A stretch of DNA of 64,000 bases from Agromyces sp. H17E-10 (GTDB lineage Bacteria > Actinomycetota > Actinomycetes > Actinomycetales > Microbacteriaceae). The stretch is from positions 4,154,001 to 4,218,000 of the forward strand of contig NZ_CP095042.1 in assembly GCF_022919715.1 (NCBI RefSeq). The letters are read 5' to 3'. The translations under genes were made by a program, and so were the position numbers. The notes below the pieces were generated by a model that worked only from the letters and a program-made list of their open reading frames with translations, was not told where the DNA came from and did no database searches. Position 1 is the first letter of the stretch; each line of letters begins with the position of its first letter. Positions 29,031 through 34,938 of this stretch are shown here, in pieces.

Positions 29031-31109
29031 TCAGGCGTCGATGCGGTCGCGCTCGAGCGCGTCGGAGCTCTCGATGATGAACTCCTTGCGGGGAGCCACG
29101 TCGTTGCCCATGAGGAGCTCGAACACCCGCCCGGCGTTCTCCGCGTCACCGATGCCGACGCGGCGCAGGGTGCGGTGGCGACGGTCCATCGTCGTCGTCG
29201 CGAGCTGGTCGGCGTCCATCTCGCCGAGGCCCTTGTATCGCTGGATCGGGTCCTGGTACCGCTTCTTCTGCTTGTCGAGTCCGGCGAGCACCGCCGCGAG
29301 CTCGGCCTCGGAGTAGGTGTAGATCGTCTCGTTCGGCTTCGATCCGGGGTTCATGACGACGACCCGGTGCAACGGAGGTACGGCTGCGAACACGCGGCCT
29401 TCCTCGATCATCGGCCGCATGTAACGGAAGAACAGGGTGAGCAGGAGGGTGCGGATGTGTGCGCCGTCGACGTCGGCATCGGCCATCAGGATGACCTTGC
29501 CGTAGCGGGCCTGGGCGAGGTCGAAGCTGCGACCGGAGCCCGCACCGATCACCTGGATGATCGACGCGCACTCGGCATTGCCGAGCATGTCGGCCACGCT
29601 CGCCTTCTGCACGTTGAGGATCTTGCCGCGGATCGGCAACAGCGCCTGGTGCTCGCTGTCGCGCGCGAGCTTCGCCGTGCCGAGCGCCGAGTCGCCCTCC
29701 ACGATGAACAGTTCGGAGTGCGCGACGTCGTTCGACCGGCAGTCGACGAGCTTCGCCGGCAGCGACGAGCTCTCGAGTGCGTTCTTGCGACGCTGCGTCT
29801 CTTTATGGGCTCGCGCGGAGATGCGCGACTTCATCTCGGCGACGACCTTGTCGAGCAGGAGCGCGGACTGCGTCTTGTCGTCGCGCTTGGTCGACGCGAA
29901 CCGCTCCTTCAGCTCCTTCGTGAGCACGTTCGTGACGATGCTTCGCACGGCCGGTGTGCCGAGCACCTCTTTCGTCTGGCCCTCGAACTGCGGCTCGGGG
30001 AGGCGCACCGTGATGACCGCGGTGAGCCCGGCGAGCACGTCGTCCTTCTCGAGCTTGTCGTTGCCGGCCTTGAGCCGGCGCGCGTTCTGCTCGACCTGCT
30101 GGCGGAGGAACTTCAGGAGGCCCTGGTCGAAGCCGGCCTGGTGCGTGCCGCCCTTGGGCGTCGCGATGATGTTGACGAACGACCGCACGACCGTGTCGTA
30201 CCCGGTGCCCCACCGCAGGGCGATGTCGACCTCGCACTCGCGCGAGAGCTCGGTCGGCACCATCGCGCCCGAGTCGCTCAGCACGGGCACGGTCTCGGTG
30301 AAGTTCCCGGTGCCCGTGAGCCGCCAGATGTCGGTGATCGGCGAGTCGGGCGAGAGGTGCTCGACGAACTCGGAGATGCCGCCGTCGAACTGGAACGACG
30401 TCGTGTGCGGCGTCTCGCCCCGTTCGTCGGTCACGTCGATCGCGAGTCCGGGCACGAGGAATGCGGTCTGGCGGGCGCGCCCGATGAGGTCGTCGGTCTG
30501 GAACTCGGCGCCCTTCGTGAAGATCTGCCGATCGGCCCAGTAGCGGATGCGGGTGCCGGTGACGCCCTTCTTGACCTTGCCGACGACGCGCAGCTCGCTG
30601 CGCTCCTCGAAGGGGGTGAACGGGGCGTCGGGCGACGGCACCCCGTCGTCGGCGAAGATGCCCGGCTCGCCGCGGTGGAACGACATCGCATAGGTCTTTC
30701 CGTCGCGGTCGACCTCGACGTCGAGCCGCTCGCTGAGCGCGTTCACGACGGAGGCGCCGACGCCGTGCAGACCGCCGGACGCCGCGTACGAGCCGGTTCC
30801 GAACTTGCCGCCGGCGTGGAGCTTCGTGAAGACGACCTCGACGCCCGTGAGACCGGTCTTCGGCTCGACGTCGACGGGGATGCCGCGGGCTCGGTCTCGC
30901 ACCTCGACACTGCCGTCGGGGTGCAGCAGCACCGCGATCTCGGTGCCGTGACCCCCGAGCGCCTCGTCGACCGAGTTGTCGATGATCTCCCACAGGCAGT
31001 GCATGAGGCCTCGGGAATCGGTCGAGCCGATGTACATGCCGGGGCGCTTGCGCACCGCCTCGAGTCCTTCGAGGACGGAGAGATGGCGGGCGGAATAGTC
31101 GGAGCTCAC
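29031..31109 (-). CDS. parE: Type II topoisomerase subunit B (topoisomerase IV ParE)
   Basis: 692 aa. The GHKL ATPase has EAVRKRPGMYIGST, the Asn and Asp of EIIDNSVDEALGG (about residues 40-52), and the ATP lid GGLHGVGASVVNAL. The transducer follows, then TOPRIM with LFIVEGDSALG (catalytic Glu) and ILMADADVDGAHI (DxD), and the C-terminal RYKGLGEMD signature. It supplies ATP-driven gating to ParC. GTG at 31109 is preferred because TAGGCT (AGCCTA, 31118-31123) ends eight bases upstream. Confidence 0.92.
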   Translation of the reverse strand: MSSDYSARHLSVLEGLEAVRKRPGMYIGSTDSRGLMHCLWEIIDNSVDEALGGHGTEIAVLLHPDGSVEVRDRARGIPVDVEPKTGLTGVEVVFTKLHAGGKFGTGSYAASGGLHGVGASVVNALSERLDVEVDRDGKTYAMSFHRGEPGIFADDGVPSPDAPFTPFEERSELRVVGKVKKGVTGTRIRYWADRQIFTKGAEFQTDDLIGRARQTAFLVPGLAIDVTDERGETPHTTSFQFDGGISEFVEHLSPDSPITDIWRLTGTGNFTETVPVLSDSGAMVPTELSRECEVDIALRWGTGYDTVVRSFVNIIATPKGGTHQAGFDQGLLKFLRQQVEQNARRLKAGNDKLEKDDVLAGLTAVITVRLPEPQFEGQTKEVLGTPAVRSIVTNVLTKELKERFASTKRDDKTQSALLLDKVVAEMKSRISARAHKETQRRKNALESSSLPAKLVDCRSNDVAHSELFIVEGDSALGTAKLARDSEHQALLPIRGKILNVQKASVADMLGNAECASIIQVIGAGSGRSFDLAQARYGKVILMADADVDGAHIRTLLLTLFFRYMRPMIEEGRVFAAVPPLHRVVVMNPGSKPNETIYTYSEAELAAVLAGLDKQKKRYQDPIQRYKGLGEMDADQLATTTMDRRHRTLRRVGIGDAENAGRVFELLMGNDVAPRKEFIIESSDALERDRIDA

Positions 31110-31252
31110 GTCGACCAAGCCTAGTGAGCGCGACCGACACCGGCGTGCAGGCGCTACGCGCTGAGCGAAATGCCCGGCGGAACGGAAGTCTCGGGCTCTC
31201 GAGCGTGTTTTCATTGATGAACGGACAGAGCATGAGCGACGGAGGAGGAGCC

Positions 31253-31486
31253 ATGACCCAGTACACCGAGACCACCGGTGCGGTCGAAGCCGAGACCCCT
31301 TACGAGCTCACGGCGCTCGACCGCTGCGACGCGTGCGGCGCCCAGGCGTACATCCGCGTCGTCGTCGCGAGCGGCGAGCTGCTGTTCTGCGCGCACCACG
31401 GCCGCAAGCACCAGGAGAAGCTCTCGCAGATCGCGCATTCGTGGCACGACGAGAGCGACCGTCTCCTCGTCGACGACGGTCGCTGA
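31253..31486 (+). CDS. Small DUF7455-type protein
   Basis: 77 aa. The core LDRCDACGAQAYIRVVV and LLFCAHHGRKHQEKL has a Cys-x-x-Cys and a Cys-x-His-His cluster, which could bind one zinc. This small family is found across Actinobacteria, often beside sigA and topoisomerase genes as here, and has no known role. GGAGGAG lies just before the ATG at 31253. An in-frame start at 31208 would overlap less good signals. It is divergent from parE and ends before a strong hairpin. Confidence 0.8.
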   Translation: MTQYTETTGAVEAETPYELTALDRCDACGAQAYIRVVVASGELLFCAHHGRKHQEKLSQIAHSWHDESDRLLVDDGR

Positions 31487-31599: not shown

Positions 31600-32337
31600 T
31601 CAACGGGCGGACGCCTCGACCCCGGCCGCGCGCGACTGCGCGTCGCGCGCGGCCGACGCGTAGGCGTCGACCTCGGCGGCGCGACCGCCCGGCGTGTAGC
31701 CGAGCCCGGCCCGCTCGGCCATGACGCCGATCAGGTGGTCAGCGAAGGCCGGGTTCTTGGCGAGGACGGGCCCGTGCAGGTGGGTGCCGTAGACCGACCC
31801 CATGACCACGCCCTCCTGGCCGGAGTCGCGACCGTTGCCGACGCCGGCCAGCACTCGCCCGAGTGGGGAGCCCTCTGCGCCGCGGTAGTCGCGGGCGTGG
31901 TTCTCGAAGCCCACGAGCGTGCCGAACGCGGACGAGCGCACCACGAGGTCACCCGTGACGCGGGCTGTGCGGGGCACTGCGCGGCCGGGCAGGATGCCGA
32001 GGCCCTCGATGCTGCGCCCGTCGCCGGTCTCGACCCCCCAGCTCAGCAGCTCCCAGCCGGTGCCGACGGCGAGGATGGGCACGCCCTCCGTGCCCCACCG
32101 GCGGAGTTCGTCGTGCAGGGCGAGCAGGCGCGAGCGGCTCTCCTCGAGCGAGGCGTCGCTGCCCGAGCCGAGCACGACCGCGTCGACGCGATCGGGCAGC
32201 CGGTCGGCGTCGTCGACGGCGATCACCTCGGCGTCGAGGCCGGCCCACGCCGCCCGCATCGCGAGCACCTGGGCGTTCTGCGCGTCGCCGTTGGTGTTCT
32301 GCAGGGCCGGCAGCAACGAGACGATCGTGAGGCTCAT
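31600..32337 (-). CDS. gatD: GatD-like glutamine amidotransferase homologue lacking the catalytic cysteine
   Basis: 245 aa, a class I amidotransferase fold. In GatD of S. aureus, C94 and H189 release ammonia from glutamine for MurT to amidate D-Glu of lipid II. Here the region reads PILAVGTGWELL, where the family has a Cys-Gly-Gly-Tyr-Gln core; the nucleophile position is Gly92. No cysteine occurs anywhere in the protein. The rest is well kept: GLGIL, VGFENHARDY, AGVGNG and GTHLHGPVLAKNP, with His188 at the catalytic His position. So the fold and partner surfaces are retained and the glutaminase should be dead. Its ATG overlaps the murT stop (ATGA). Confidence 0.88.
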   Translation of the reverse strand: MSLTIVSLLPALQNTNGDAQNAQVLAMRAAWAGLDAEVIAVDDADRLPDRVDAVVLGSGSDASLEESRSRLLALHDELRRWGTEGVPILAVGTGWELLSWGVETGDGRSIEGLGILPGRAVPRTARVTGDLVVRSSAFGTLVGFENHARDYRGAEGSPLGRVLAGVGNGRDSGQEGVVMGSVYGTHLHGPVLAKNPAFADHLIGVMAERAGLGYTPGGRAAEVDAYASAARDAQSRAAGVEASAR

Positions 32338-33605
32338 TCGGTACCCGTCAATCCGAGGTGTGCACGCGTGCGCCGCATCGAGTCGGCCGAGAAGACGATC
32401 GTCTTCACTCCCGAGGTGGGAGCCGGTGCAGCGAGGAAGTCGTCGAGCGCGCGACCGAGGTCGGGTTCGACCCGGTCGATCTCGACGCCGTCGTAGGCGA
32501 GCATGAGCGCCGCCTCGCCGGCCTTCGAACCGCTCACGATCGCGACCCGACCGAGCGACGAGGCATCCGCCGGCCAGAAATAGGAGGGATCGCGCACGTC
32601 GGAGCCGATCGCGAACAGGATGTCGCTCGTGCCGGGTTCGATGCTGTCGACGTTGAGCTGGTAGCTCGCGGGATTCTGGATGAGGACGAACTCGACGTCC
32701 TGACCGCGCACGCTCAACCGCTCGCCGCGACCGAACACGGCCGGGATCGCGGTGAGCGCCGCAGCTGCGGTCTCCGCCGAGAAGCGCTCGCCGAGGACGG
32801 CCTTCGCGGTCGAGTACGCGGCCGCCGCATCGACGGCGTAGTGCGTGCCGCGCGCCGGCAGTCCGGCCTCGACCCGCAACCCGTCGTCGAGGAGCACGAC
32901 CTCGCGGCCGTTCACCGCCTCGATCACGACGCCGACGGCCGGGTCGAGGCGATCGGTCGACGTCTCGGTGTAGCCGAGGCCGCGGGGCGACGCATCGAGC
33001 ACCGCCTGCGAGACCCCGTAGCGCCGCACCGCGACGCCGGGGCGAACCTTCGCGGCGAGCCGCTCGAGGTAGGCGTCGTCGGCGTTCACGACCACCGACT
33101 CCCCCGCCCGCGCGGCGATGCGCTCGAGCATGCCGGCGACCATCTCGGAGTCGTGGAAGCGGTCGATCTGGTCGACCATGACGTTGGTGAGGCAGACGAC
33201 ACGGGCGTCGACACCCTGCATGACGAGGGCGCCATGTCCTTCGTCCATCTCGAGCACGGCGACGTCACCGGGCACTCGTCCGCGCCAGTCGGCCTGCTCG
33301 AGCAGCGCCGAGGTCAGCCCCTGGCTGATGTTCGCGGTCGACGGGTTCGTGAAGACGTCGACGCCGTGCTCGCGCAGGATGGCGACGAGCATCTTCGTGG
33401 TCGTCGACTTTCCCGCCGAACCCGACACCACGACGAGCCCCTGCGGGAAGCCCGACAGGGTGCGCTTCAGGTAGTTCGGCGCGATGCGGTTGACGACGAG
33501 CCCGGGAACCGCAGAACCGCCGCCCGGCTTGCGCAGCCGGGCGGCGAATCTGGTGAGTCTGCCGACGAGGATCGCCGGCCCATAACGCAGGGATCCAGCG
33601 CGCAC
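32334..33605 (-). CDS. murT: MurT-like Mur ligase without the zinc ribbon
   Basis: 423 aa, a Mur-ligase central domain plus DUF1727 C-terminal domain. MurT normally activates the alpha-carboxyl of D-Glu in lipid II with ATP so that GatD-derived ammonia can amidate it. The P-loop is VVVSGSAGKSTTTKML (about residues 58-73). The Cys4 zinc ribbon usual in MurT is absent: only one Cys exists (RVVCLTNV). Near the end, SDVRDPSYFWPAD (about 335-347) replaces the usual DGRDxSWxWD, so the Asp that completes the GatD catalytic triad is displaced. GTG start lies seven bases after sigA; gatD overlaps its stop. Confidence 0.85.
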   Translation of the reverse strand: MRAGSLRYGPAILVGRLTRFAARLRKPGGGSAVPGLVVNRIAPNYLKRTLSGFPQGLVVVSGSAGKSTTTKMLVAILREHGVDVFTNPSTANISQGLTSALLEQADWRGRVPGDVAVLEMDEGHGALVMQGVDARVVCLTNVMVDQIDRFHDSEMVAGMLERIAARAGESVVVNADDAYLERLAAKVRPGVAVRRYGVSQAVLDASPRGLGYTETSTDRLDPAVGVVIEAVNGREVVLLDDGLRVEAGLPARGTHYAVDAAAAYSTAKAVLGERFSAETAAAALTAIPAVFGRGERLSVRGQDVEFVLIQNPASYQLNVDSIEPGTSDILFAIGSDVRDPSYFWPADASSLGRVAIVSGSKAGEAALMLAYDGVEIDRVEPDLGRALDDFLAAPAPTSGVKTIVFSADSMRRTRAHLGLTGTE

Positions 33606-33612
33606 CGGCGGC

Positions 33613-34938
<1,326 letters not shown>

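What the first reader, a model, noticed from the sequence alone, without database searches (positions are those of the whole stretch)
31600..32337. GatD homologue with no cysteine: a glutaminase without its nucleophile
Seen: the protein is GatD-like along its length, including GLGIL, VGFENH and the His of GTHLHGPVL at residue 188. The nucleophile elbow reads AVGTGWELL, so the Cys (C94 in S. aureus GatD) is Gly92 and the following Gln is Glu. No Cys occurs in 245 residues. Known: GatD uses Cys-His to free ammonia from glutamine, which MurT uses to amidate the D-Glu alpha-carboxyl of lipid II. Also known: Microbacteriaceae make group B peptidoglycan, cross-linked through that same alpha-carboxyl. 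Inference: this complex no longer amidates. It may pass another amine (Gly or a diamino acid) to the activated D-Glu, or act as a scaffold for group B cross-link assembly.
Basis: partly seen in the sequence, partly recalled or inferred. Interest (0 to 1): 0.9.

Follow-up and report, generated by a model that had tools for sequence, protein, structure and literature searches.

The report
Dead glutaminase in cell-wall ligase locus
A bacterium that appears to be an Agromyces, and many of its relatives, make a wall-modifying enzyme whose ammonia-making half has lost its working cysteine, and the gene sits at a spot where relatives swap in other amino-acid-joining enzymes, which suggests that it now helps build this family's unusual wall cross-links.

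Summary
The ORF at 31600-32337(-) is a GatD homologue with Gly92 in place of the nucleophilic Cys, His188 kept, and no Cys in 245 residues. It is the only MurT-GatD pair found in this complete genome (inferred genus Agromyces). It is no local accident: 116 of 131 GatD sequences fetched from this family (Microbacteriaceae) lack the Cys, against 0 of 35 from nine other families of the order. The partner MurT keeps P-loop Lys, Mg Glu and acceptor-binding Asn, but the Arg facing the ammonia gate is lost (0 of 105, against 50 of 50 canonical). The pair sits between sigA and parE. In relatives that interval holds such a pair or a CofE-like ligase, some with ATP-grasp or racemase-like genes; it is empty in 15 of 19 resolved genomes that keep a canonical pair. 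In Microbacterium the racemase agrees with ornithine versus lysine in the wall for 10 of 12 documented species. Best reading: MurT joins an amino acid, not ammonia, to the D-Glu alpha-carboxyl for group B cross-links, with GatD kept as an obligate scaffold. Against it: Leucobacter is described as group B yet keeps a canonical pair. No activity was tested.

The parts
31600..32337 (-). gatD* : GatD-like subunit, 245 aa, no Cys; elbow Gly92 in place of the nucleophile
32062..32064 (-). codon of Gly92, position of the catalytic Cys (C94 of S. aureus GatD)
   Evidence: reading frame aligned; coordinates by arithmetic
31774..31776 (-). codon of His188, position of the catalytic His (H189 of S. aureus), retained
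   Evidence: reading frame aligned; coordinates by arithmetic
32334..33605 (-). murT*: MurT-like Mur-type ligase, 423 aa, overlaps gatD* by 4 nt; P-loop Lys, acceptor Asn, Mg Glu and D349-equivalent kept; gate Arg and the Lys of the KNP loop replaced; one Cys, so no Cys4 zinc ribbon (also true of canonical MurTs of its family, 0-3 Cys)
33613..34938 (-). sigA-like sigma-70 factor, upstream flank of the cassette, conserved synteny
   Evidence: Pfam Sigma70 regions; synteny
31253..31486 (+). DUF7455 small protein, flank of the cassette on the other side
   Evidence: Pfam PF24254 85.1 bits; synteny
29031..31214 (-). parE/gyrB-like topoisomerase subunit, outer flank
   Evidence: Pfam; synteny

Best explanation
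The pair is a MurT-type ligase (MurT*) with a glutaminase-dead GatD (GatD*). MurT* would phosphorylate the alpha-carboxyl of the stem-peptide D-Glu with ATP, as MurT is thought to do, but the attacking amine would be a free amino acid rather than ammonia; in Agromyces most likely D-diaminobutyrate. This creates the branch through which group B peptidoglycan is cross-linked. GatD* is kept because MurT is inactive without GatD even when its glutaminase is not needed (shown in S. aureus); it would fold or close the ligase and may bind the incoming amino acid. The sigA-parE interval is the family's cross-bridge locus: MurT*-GatD* or a CofE-like protein is the first ligase, an ATP-grasp protein would add a second residue where there is one, and an alanine-racemase-like enzyme would supply a D-diamino acid. 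Shown: loss of Cys, kept ATP-site and acceptor residues, loss of the gate Arg, locus swapping, near-exclusion with canonical pairs, racemase mostly tracking ornithine versus lysine. Inferred: the reaction, substrate, order of addition and the role of GatD*.
For: (1) 116 of 131 GatD fetched from the family lack the Cys; 35 of 35 from nine other families keep it. (2) MurT* keeps the P-loop Lys, the Asn that contacts the acceptor carboxylate, the Mg Glu, a conserved FGR Arg (taken to be the hinge Arg) and the D349-equivalent in 105 of 105, while the gate Arg is lost in 105 of 105 and present in 50 of 50 canonical partners (residue roles from passages of PMC6085368 and PMC6113224). (3) The same interval holds MurT*-GatD*, CofE-like, ATP-grasp and racemase-like genes in varying sets. 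(4) Cassette and canonical pair nearly exclude each other: 127 cassette only, 4 both, 15 canonical with empty interval, 3 neither, 6 unresolved of 155 genomes; Fisher p 2e-14, not corrected for relatedness. (5) Within Microbacterium, 7 of 9 ornithine species and 0 of 3 lysine species have the racemase (wall states from passages of PMC10757982 and PMC10978784). (6) Rhodoluna lacicola, matched by its exact genome length of 1,430,433 bp, has a Cys-less type-I pair, and its wall was measured as B2beta with a D-Ala-D-Dab peptide. (7) S. aureus MurT needs GatD even with free ammonia, and C94G GatD still serves. (8) Outside the family a CofE-like domain occurs in long proteins, in three of four scanned clearly behind an AsnB-type amidotransferase; no genome is on both the list of its carriers and the list of GatD carriers (19 carriers lay in the GatD sample).
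Against: Leucobacter is described as B-type cross-linked with Dab, yet its proteins on record are canonical Cys-containing GatD, and the three genomes whose GatD is closest to Leucobacter (G014, G047, G158, 79-81% identical) have an empty interval. Four genomes have both a canonical pair and a cassette and three have neither. The ligase side is not wholly conserved: the Lys of the KNP loop (K321 of S. pneumoniae) is Gln in 42 of 42 type-I MurTs, and the Asn after it is Ser in 3 of 3 Ib. M. radiodurans and M. schleiferi are listed with ornithine but lack the racemase at the locus, several loci are not from type strains, and the correlation rests on few independent changes (4 on the tree; one-sided p 0.045). 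The window's genome has one PF00842 racemase, so a source of D-Dab is not identified. No cassette gene was assayed. The wall of this strain is not known to me from any call; Agromyces as B2gamma is recalled.
Confidence: 0.58

Rival explanations
1. Ammonia-dependent amidation: the complex still makes D-isoglutamine, taking free ammonia, as the Cys-less glutaminase domain of vertebrate carbamoyl-phosphate synthetase I does (recalled parallel).
For: S. aureus MurT with GatD C94G, the very substitution seen here, still amidates lipid II with NH3 at pH 8.5 (PMC3266927 passages). His188 is kept in type I (42 of 42).
Against: No NH3 use at pH 7.5 in that study. The gate Arg is lost in 105 of 105 type I, Ib and II partners, and 27 of 60 type-II GatD lost the His as well. 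Near-exclusion with canonical pairs and swapping with CofE-like, ATP-grasp and racemase-like genes are not expected of an amidation locus.
Confidence: 0.15
2. The ligase adds an amino acid such as Gly to the D-Glu alpha-carboxyl as a cap, and cross-links are made by other enzymes.
For: Same ligase and locus evidence; the AsnB-CofE fusions in other families fit a capping reaction on walls that are not group B (recalled: Gly or amino-acid amides on D-Glu in Micrococcaceae).
Against: The racemase association with ornithine versus lysine points at the bridging diamino acid; Rhodoluna has D-Ala-D-Dab peptides.
Confidence: 0.14
3. GatD* and MurT* are only a scaffold or regulator for another, unseen cross-bridge enzyme.
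For: GatD* lacks its nucleophile; the pair's neighbours differ between lineages; the KNP-loop Lys of MurT is Gln in type I.
Against: P-loop Lys, Mg Glu and acceptor Asn of MurT* are invariant in 105 of 105, and the 35 type-I loci with a complete interval hold no other cassette gene. A pure scaffold need not keep an ATP site.
Confidence: 0.08
4. Decaying remnant of a canonical pair without a function.
For: Catalytic residues vary in type II (His lost in 27 of 60).
Against: Open reading frames, conserved synteny and conservation across many genera.
Confidence: 0.02

Closest known systems
MurT-GatD lipid II isoglutaminyl synthase (S. aureus 6gs2/6h5e, S. pneumoniae 6fqb, S. pyogenes 9sq9)
   Same: Fold, murT-gatD gene order, P-loop Lys, Mg Glu, acceptor Asn, MurT D349-equivalent and GatD His
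   Different: No nucleophilic Cys, no gate Arg in MurT, KNP-loop Lys is Gln, shortened ADGRD loop; GatD scores 122.6 and 89.2 bits against NCBIfam cut-offs of 450 and 400. The missing Cys4 ribbon does not separate it from canonical MurTs of its own family
CofE / F420-0:gamma-glutamyl ligase (PF01996)
   Same: Occupies the same place after sigA in relatives, and belongs to a family that forms amide bonds
   Different: Different Pfam family from MurT or GatD; the Microbacterium form scores 30 bits against an equivalog cut-off of 180.65, so it is probably not a true CofE
AsnB-type amidotransferase fused to a CofE-like domain in other families
   Same: Apparent alternative to MurT-GatD in the order; 9 of 12 have an N-terminal MCGI motif, 3 do not
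   Different: Class II amidotransferase; no sigA or parE in the 3 kb around it in the 12 loci fetched
Archaeal MurT-like ligases without GatD and pseudomurein pMur ligases
   Same: MurT relatives without glutaminase chemistry (PMC11915815 passages); 6vr7 and 7tzi are structural neighbours of the MurT* model
   Different: No GatD partner; archaeal; different wall
Carbamoyl-phosphate synthetase I (recalled)
   Same: Glutaminase domain kept after loss of its Cys
   Different: Uses ammonia; not a wall enzyme

Membership tests
MurT-GatD isoglutaminyl synthase | GATase_3 domain with GatD-like sequence and fold | tested here: met
   Pfam 63.9 bits; 5n9m E 2.3e-31; model TM 0.89 to 6gs2_A
MurT-GatD isoglutaminyl synthase | Nucleophilic Cys at the elbow | tested here: not met
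   Gly92; no Cys in the protein
MurT-GatD isoglutaminyl synthase | Catalytic His and the MurT Asp (D349) of the third site | tested here: met
   His188; Asp conserved in 42 of 42 type I
MurT-GatD isoglutaminyl synthase | Adjacent MurT with Mur-ligase ATP site and acceptor Asn | tested here: met
MurT-GatD isoglutaminyl synthase | MurT gate Arg (R135 of S. pneumoniae) | tested here: not met
   0 of 105 type I, Ib and II partners, 50 of 50 canonical
MurT-GatD isoglutaminyl synthase | NCBIfam equivalog cut-offs | tested here: not met
   GatD 122.6 and 89.2 against 450 and 400; MurT 86.8 and 85.9 against 800
MurT-GatD isoglutaminyl synthase | Glutamine-dependent amidation of lipid II | not testable with these tools
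   needs enzyme assay
Group B cross-bridge ligase (proposed) | Present only where D-Glu alpha-carboxyl carries the bridge | tested here: inconclusive
   Cys-less in 116 of 131 family GatD and in none of 35 from nine other families, positive for Rhodoluna, but Leucobacter is a counter-case
Group B cross-bridge ligase (proposed) | Joins an amino acid to D-Glu | not testable with these tools
   needs assay or muropeptides
Ammonia-dependent pseudo-glutaminase complex (CPS I-like) | Cys lost, ammonia channel kept | tested here: inconclusive
   Cys lost; gate Arg changed; the channel itself was not modelled

The most novel reading that the evidence does not exclude
The sigA-parE interval of Microbacteriaceae is the long-missing group B cross-bridge locus, a swap site where MurT*-GatD* and CofE-like proteins are alternative ligases for the D-Glu alpha-carboxyl. 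In MurT*-GatD* the old glutamine pocket of GatD has become the binding site of the incoming short diamino acid, so that a dead glutaminase now delivers D-Dab in place of ammonia.
Probability: 0.4. Interest if true: 0.92.

Novelty: new variant of a known kind. Interest (0 to 1): 0.85.

Why it matters
Group B peptidoglycan has been known chemically for half a century (recalled). In what I saw of ten literature searches (listings, with passages of 13 papers, not whole texts) no paper named the enzymes that attach the bridge to the D-Glu alpha-carboxyl. If right, this gives a candidate locus, shows how an ammonia-channelling complex becomes an amino-acid ligase, and makes the change from group A to group B testable by removal of two genes. 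It also means that labels such as 'Lipid II isoglutaminyl synthase' seen on Cys-less homologues are probably wrong.

Tried and rejected
Rejected: sequencing error (fixed across relatives); rescue by a second canonical pair; simple absence of the pair in about 40 of 199 family genomes. Of 32 such or weakly matching genomes looked at by synteny, 30 gave a locus: 12 hold a far-diverged MurT after sigA, most of the others CofE-like genes, G019, G051 and G062 are empty, and G020 and G044 are unresolved. An early worry that G194, in the window's own genus, had lost the system was resolved: it has CofE plus ATP-grasp there.

Led nowhere: group B Firmicutes (Erysipelothrix, Acetobacterium, Eubacterium) were not searched for want of a named centre, so the independent-lineage test is not done. 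The one genome-contig scan went to CofE and kept the best 80 of 504 relatives, almost only Microbacterium. Paper searches on MurT, GatD and Microbacterium (0 papers), F420 ligase with peptidoglycan and Microbacteriaceae (0) and group B phrases (0) found nothing. A spurious 'ATPgrasp' label in the window locus (L006) comes from an over-extended query ORF that overlaps DUF7455 and was disregarded; at a stricter threshold it is gone.

Limits of counts. The 131 family GatD are 117 from 110 of the 156 genomes with a match, 9 type III (L153 left out as the same gene as L121) and 5 more. The tool scores only 6-13 first-look candidates per genome in most searches, so absences are provisional unless checked by synteny. 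Canonical status rests (plus G059 and G083); ten of the 155 genomes were not and rest. Outside the family I fetched 35 of 78 genomes with a match. Racemase and ATP-grasp counts in the family are lower bounds because loci are short. The 12 Microbacterium species are those among the 80 loci whose diamino acid I could read; wall data are for type or study strains, while several loci (maritypicum, oxydans, hydrocarbonoxydans, schleiferi and others) are other strains. For M. enclense strain NIO-1002 (L299, taken as the type strain from recall; no racemase, interval not intact) was counted and ZYFD042 (L252, racemase present) was not. For schleiferi and saccharophilum the isomer is not given. L291 is counted as without racemase but shows broken racemase pieces. 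M. lacticum, hominis, flavum, oleivorans (no racemase) and barkeri, aerolatum, murale (racemase) fit lysine and ornithine as I recall them, but were left out of the count.

Full report
WHAT IS THERE. The ORF at 31600-32337 on the minus strand encodes 245 aa with no cysteine, an elbow reading AVGTGWELL (Gly92 where S. aureus GatD has Cys94) and the His of GTHLHGPVL at 188. It is a full-length GatD: PF07685 at 63.9 bits, S. aureus GatD as best solved relative by sequence and by the fold of a confident model (pLDDT 96.1, TM 0.89 to 6gs2_A). It overlaps by 4 nt a MurT-like gene at 32334-33605, whose model (pLDDT 89.6) is closest to MurT of S. pyogenes and S. aureus, then to pseudomurein ligases, MurF and MurE. 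The nearest named homologues are Agromyces (82% identity to A. italicus), family Microbacteriaceae. This is the only MurT found in the 4,250,163-base single-contig genome.

HOW WIDESPREAD. I examined 131 GatD sequences from the family: 116 lack the Cys and 15 have it. By tree and partner they fall into type I (window type, 42; Gly, Ala or Asn at the elbow; His kept in 42), type II (60; Gly, Ala, Ser, Thr or Asn; His kept in 33), three Ib, one unplaced with its MurT cut off, ten type III (9 His and 1 Gly at the elbow, catalytic His lost in 10) and 15 canonical. The 101 type I, Ib and II pairs of the first set form one side of a branch in the concatenated tree (SH support 0.97, FastTree, root placed by me). 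In the three type-III MurTs printed in full a zinc ribbon is recognisable (one Cys is Ser in L157) and the P-loop is GTNGK. The single type-III member in the tree lies outside the type I, Ib, II and canonical groups, so a separate loss is likely but not proven. Of 78 genomes of other families with a GatD match I fetched 35, from nine families: 35 of 35 have Cys and His.

THE LIGASE HALF. In all 105 type I, Ib and II MurTs the P-loop Lys, the Asn that contacts the acceptor carboxylate (N85 of S. pneumoniae), the Mg Glu (E108 of S. aureus), a conserved FGR Arg that I take for the hinge Arg, and the D349-equivalent are kept. One residue separates the classes completely: the Arg of the loop facing the GatD active site (R135 of S. 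pneumoniae, which closes the gate in one model of PMC6085368, passages) is present in 50 of 50 canonical MurTs and in 0 of 105 of these. Two other places changed: the Lys of the KNP loop is Gln in 42 of 42 type I but kept in type II, and the ADGRD-like loop, near the motif implicated in stem-peptide binding, is shortened. So the ATP-dependent carboxylate activation looks largely kept while the ammonia side and substrate contacts have changed.

WHY KEEP A DEAD GLUTAMINASE. Work on S. aureus answers this. MurT alone is inactive even with ammonia supplied, and GatD C94G, the same change as here, no longer uses glutamine but still supports ammonia-dependent amidation at pH 8.5, not at 7.5 (PMC3266927 passages). 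GatD is thus needed as a partner apart from its chemistry.

THE LOCUS. In the window the pair lies between a sigA-like gene (33613-34938) and DUF7455-parE (31253-31486 and 29031-31214). Across the family this interval is a swap site. Directly after sigA stands MurT*-GatD* or a CofE-like protein (PF01996, 46.5 bits in one Microbacterium, far below the CofE equivalog cut-off). Then, depending on lineage, come an ATP-grasp protein (PF14397) and/or an alanine-racemase-like enzyme (PF01168 and PF00842). The 35 type-I loci with a complete interval hold none of these extra genes; a racemase is beside 35 of 58 type-II pairs, a lower bound. Of 155 family genomes tabulated, 131 have a cassette, 18 an empty interval and 6 are unresolved. 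Split by canonical pair: 127 cassette only, 4 both, 15 canonical with empty interval, 3 neither, and 1 canonical and 5 others unresolved (Fisher p 2e-14 on the resolved ones, uncorrected for relatedness). G016 shares a genus with two type-I genomes yet is canonical and empty, which suggests that the switch happened more than once.

A LINK TO WALL CHEMISTRY. Of 71 loci with parE in reach and enough flanking genes, 50 have the racemase and 21 do not, needing 4 changes on a tree of flanking genes. Diamino acids that I could read in two papers (PMC10757982 and PMC10978784, passages) give: ornithine species with racemase 7 (testaceum, proteolyticum, maritypicum, oxydans, hydrocarbonoxydans, galbinum, excoecariae), ornithine without 2 (radiodurans, schleiferi), lysine with 0, lysine without 3 (arborescens, saccharophilum, enclense NIO-1002) (one-sided p 0.045). 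D-ornithine needs a racemase and L-lysine does not, so the locus appears to follow the bridge residue. Type II was matched to Leifsonia, Diaminobutyricibacter, Conyzicola and Planctomonas, whose wall types I did not read.

OUTSIDE THE FAMILY. Strong CofE-like matches (414 bits or more) occur only in this family among 396 genomes of the order, 13 of them. A weaker relative (159-208 bits) occurs in 41 genomes of three other families, mostly inside long reading frames. The 12 that I fetched have it at the C-terminal end; 4 of these were run against Pfam, and 3 showed a clear AsnB-type amidotransferase ahead of it, the fourth only part of its glutamine domain. No genome is on both this list and the list of 78 with a GatD match; 19 of the 41 lay in the GatD sample. 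That search scored at most 11 candidates a genome, so misses are possible. I recall that some Micrococcaceae carry glycine or amino-acid amides on the D-Glu alpha-carboxyl, which would fit a ligase plus amidotransferase; I could not check it here.

MECHANISM. The simplest account is that MurT* activates the D-Glu alpha-carboxyl and an amino acid takes the place of ammonia. Type I, alone in its interval, fits a one-residue bridge such as Dab; CofE plus ATP-grasp in Microbacterium fits its two-residue Gly-diamino acid bridge (bridge structures recalled). This last point is inference.

AGAINST. Leucobacter is described as B-type with Dab (PMC4511665 and PMC4804768 passages), but its GatD is canonical (of the 120 listed proteins 111 matched a Cys elbow pattern and 9 did not match the pattern), and the genomes with the closest GatD have an empty interval. 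Either its cross-link is made otherwise, or the B label, drawn from a Gly-D-Glu peptide, does not prove an alpha-linked bridge. Lysinibacter, also canonical and empty (G024, contig 2,918,483), is listed with L-Lys and unknown peptidoglycan structure (PMC7033078 passages). Own-genome searches show one PF00842 racemase and only a 20.5-bit match to the CofE-like profile, so a D-Dab source is unidentified.

VERDICT. It fails the membership test for an isoglutaminyl synthase on the Cys and gate Arg, while it still looks like an ATP-dependent amide ligase that works on the same carboxyl.

Noticed in passing
L153-L162 (type III pairs, most at the sigA locus): A far-diverged MurT-GatD, elbow LFTHNALEVL-like and GTSLIGP-like in most (Cys and catalytic His both lost), MurT rich in Cys with a zinc ribbon in those printed, in several next to an ATP-grasp gene; possibly a second independent loss of glutaminase chemistry.
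   Followed up: partly
L159 (G123): CofE-like gene, a diverged MurT-GatD and a racemase-like gene all together in one interval.
   Followed up: no
L239, L241, L243, L244, L266, L272, L277, L278: Microbacterium of the arborescens, oleivorans and saccharophilum group show two tandem ATP-grasp matches after CofE.
   Followed up: no
L320, L322, L327: Three of 12 AsnB-CofE fusion frames of other families lack the N-terminal MCGI motif, L322 reading MSAI; a possible parallel loss of a glutaminase nucleophile in a different class of amidotransferase.
   Followed up: no
L240 and L311: Contigs filed as Stenotrophomonas maltophilia P13 and as Candidatus Microthrix carry a Microbacterium-like sigA-CofE locus with DUF7455 and parE; probably mis-binned or contaminated records.
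   Followed up: no
L299 (M. enclense NIO-1002): sigA and CofE are present but ATP-grasp, racemase, DUF7455 and parE are not found in the next 7 kb, unlike its relatives; the species is reported with L-lysine in an ornithine clade.
   Followed up: partly
L163 (G194): A species of the window's own genus has CofE plus ATP-grasp in place of murT*-gatD* at the same locus.
   Followed up: partly
database names: Cys-less homologues are labelled Lipid II isoglutaminyl synthase or cobyric acid synthase in public records.
   Followed up: no
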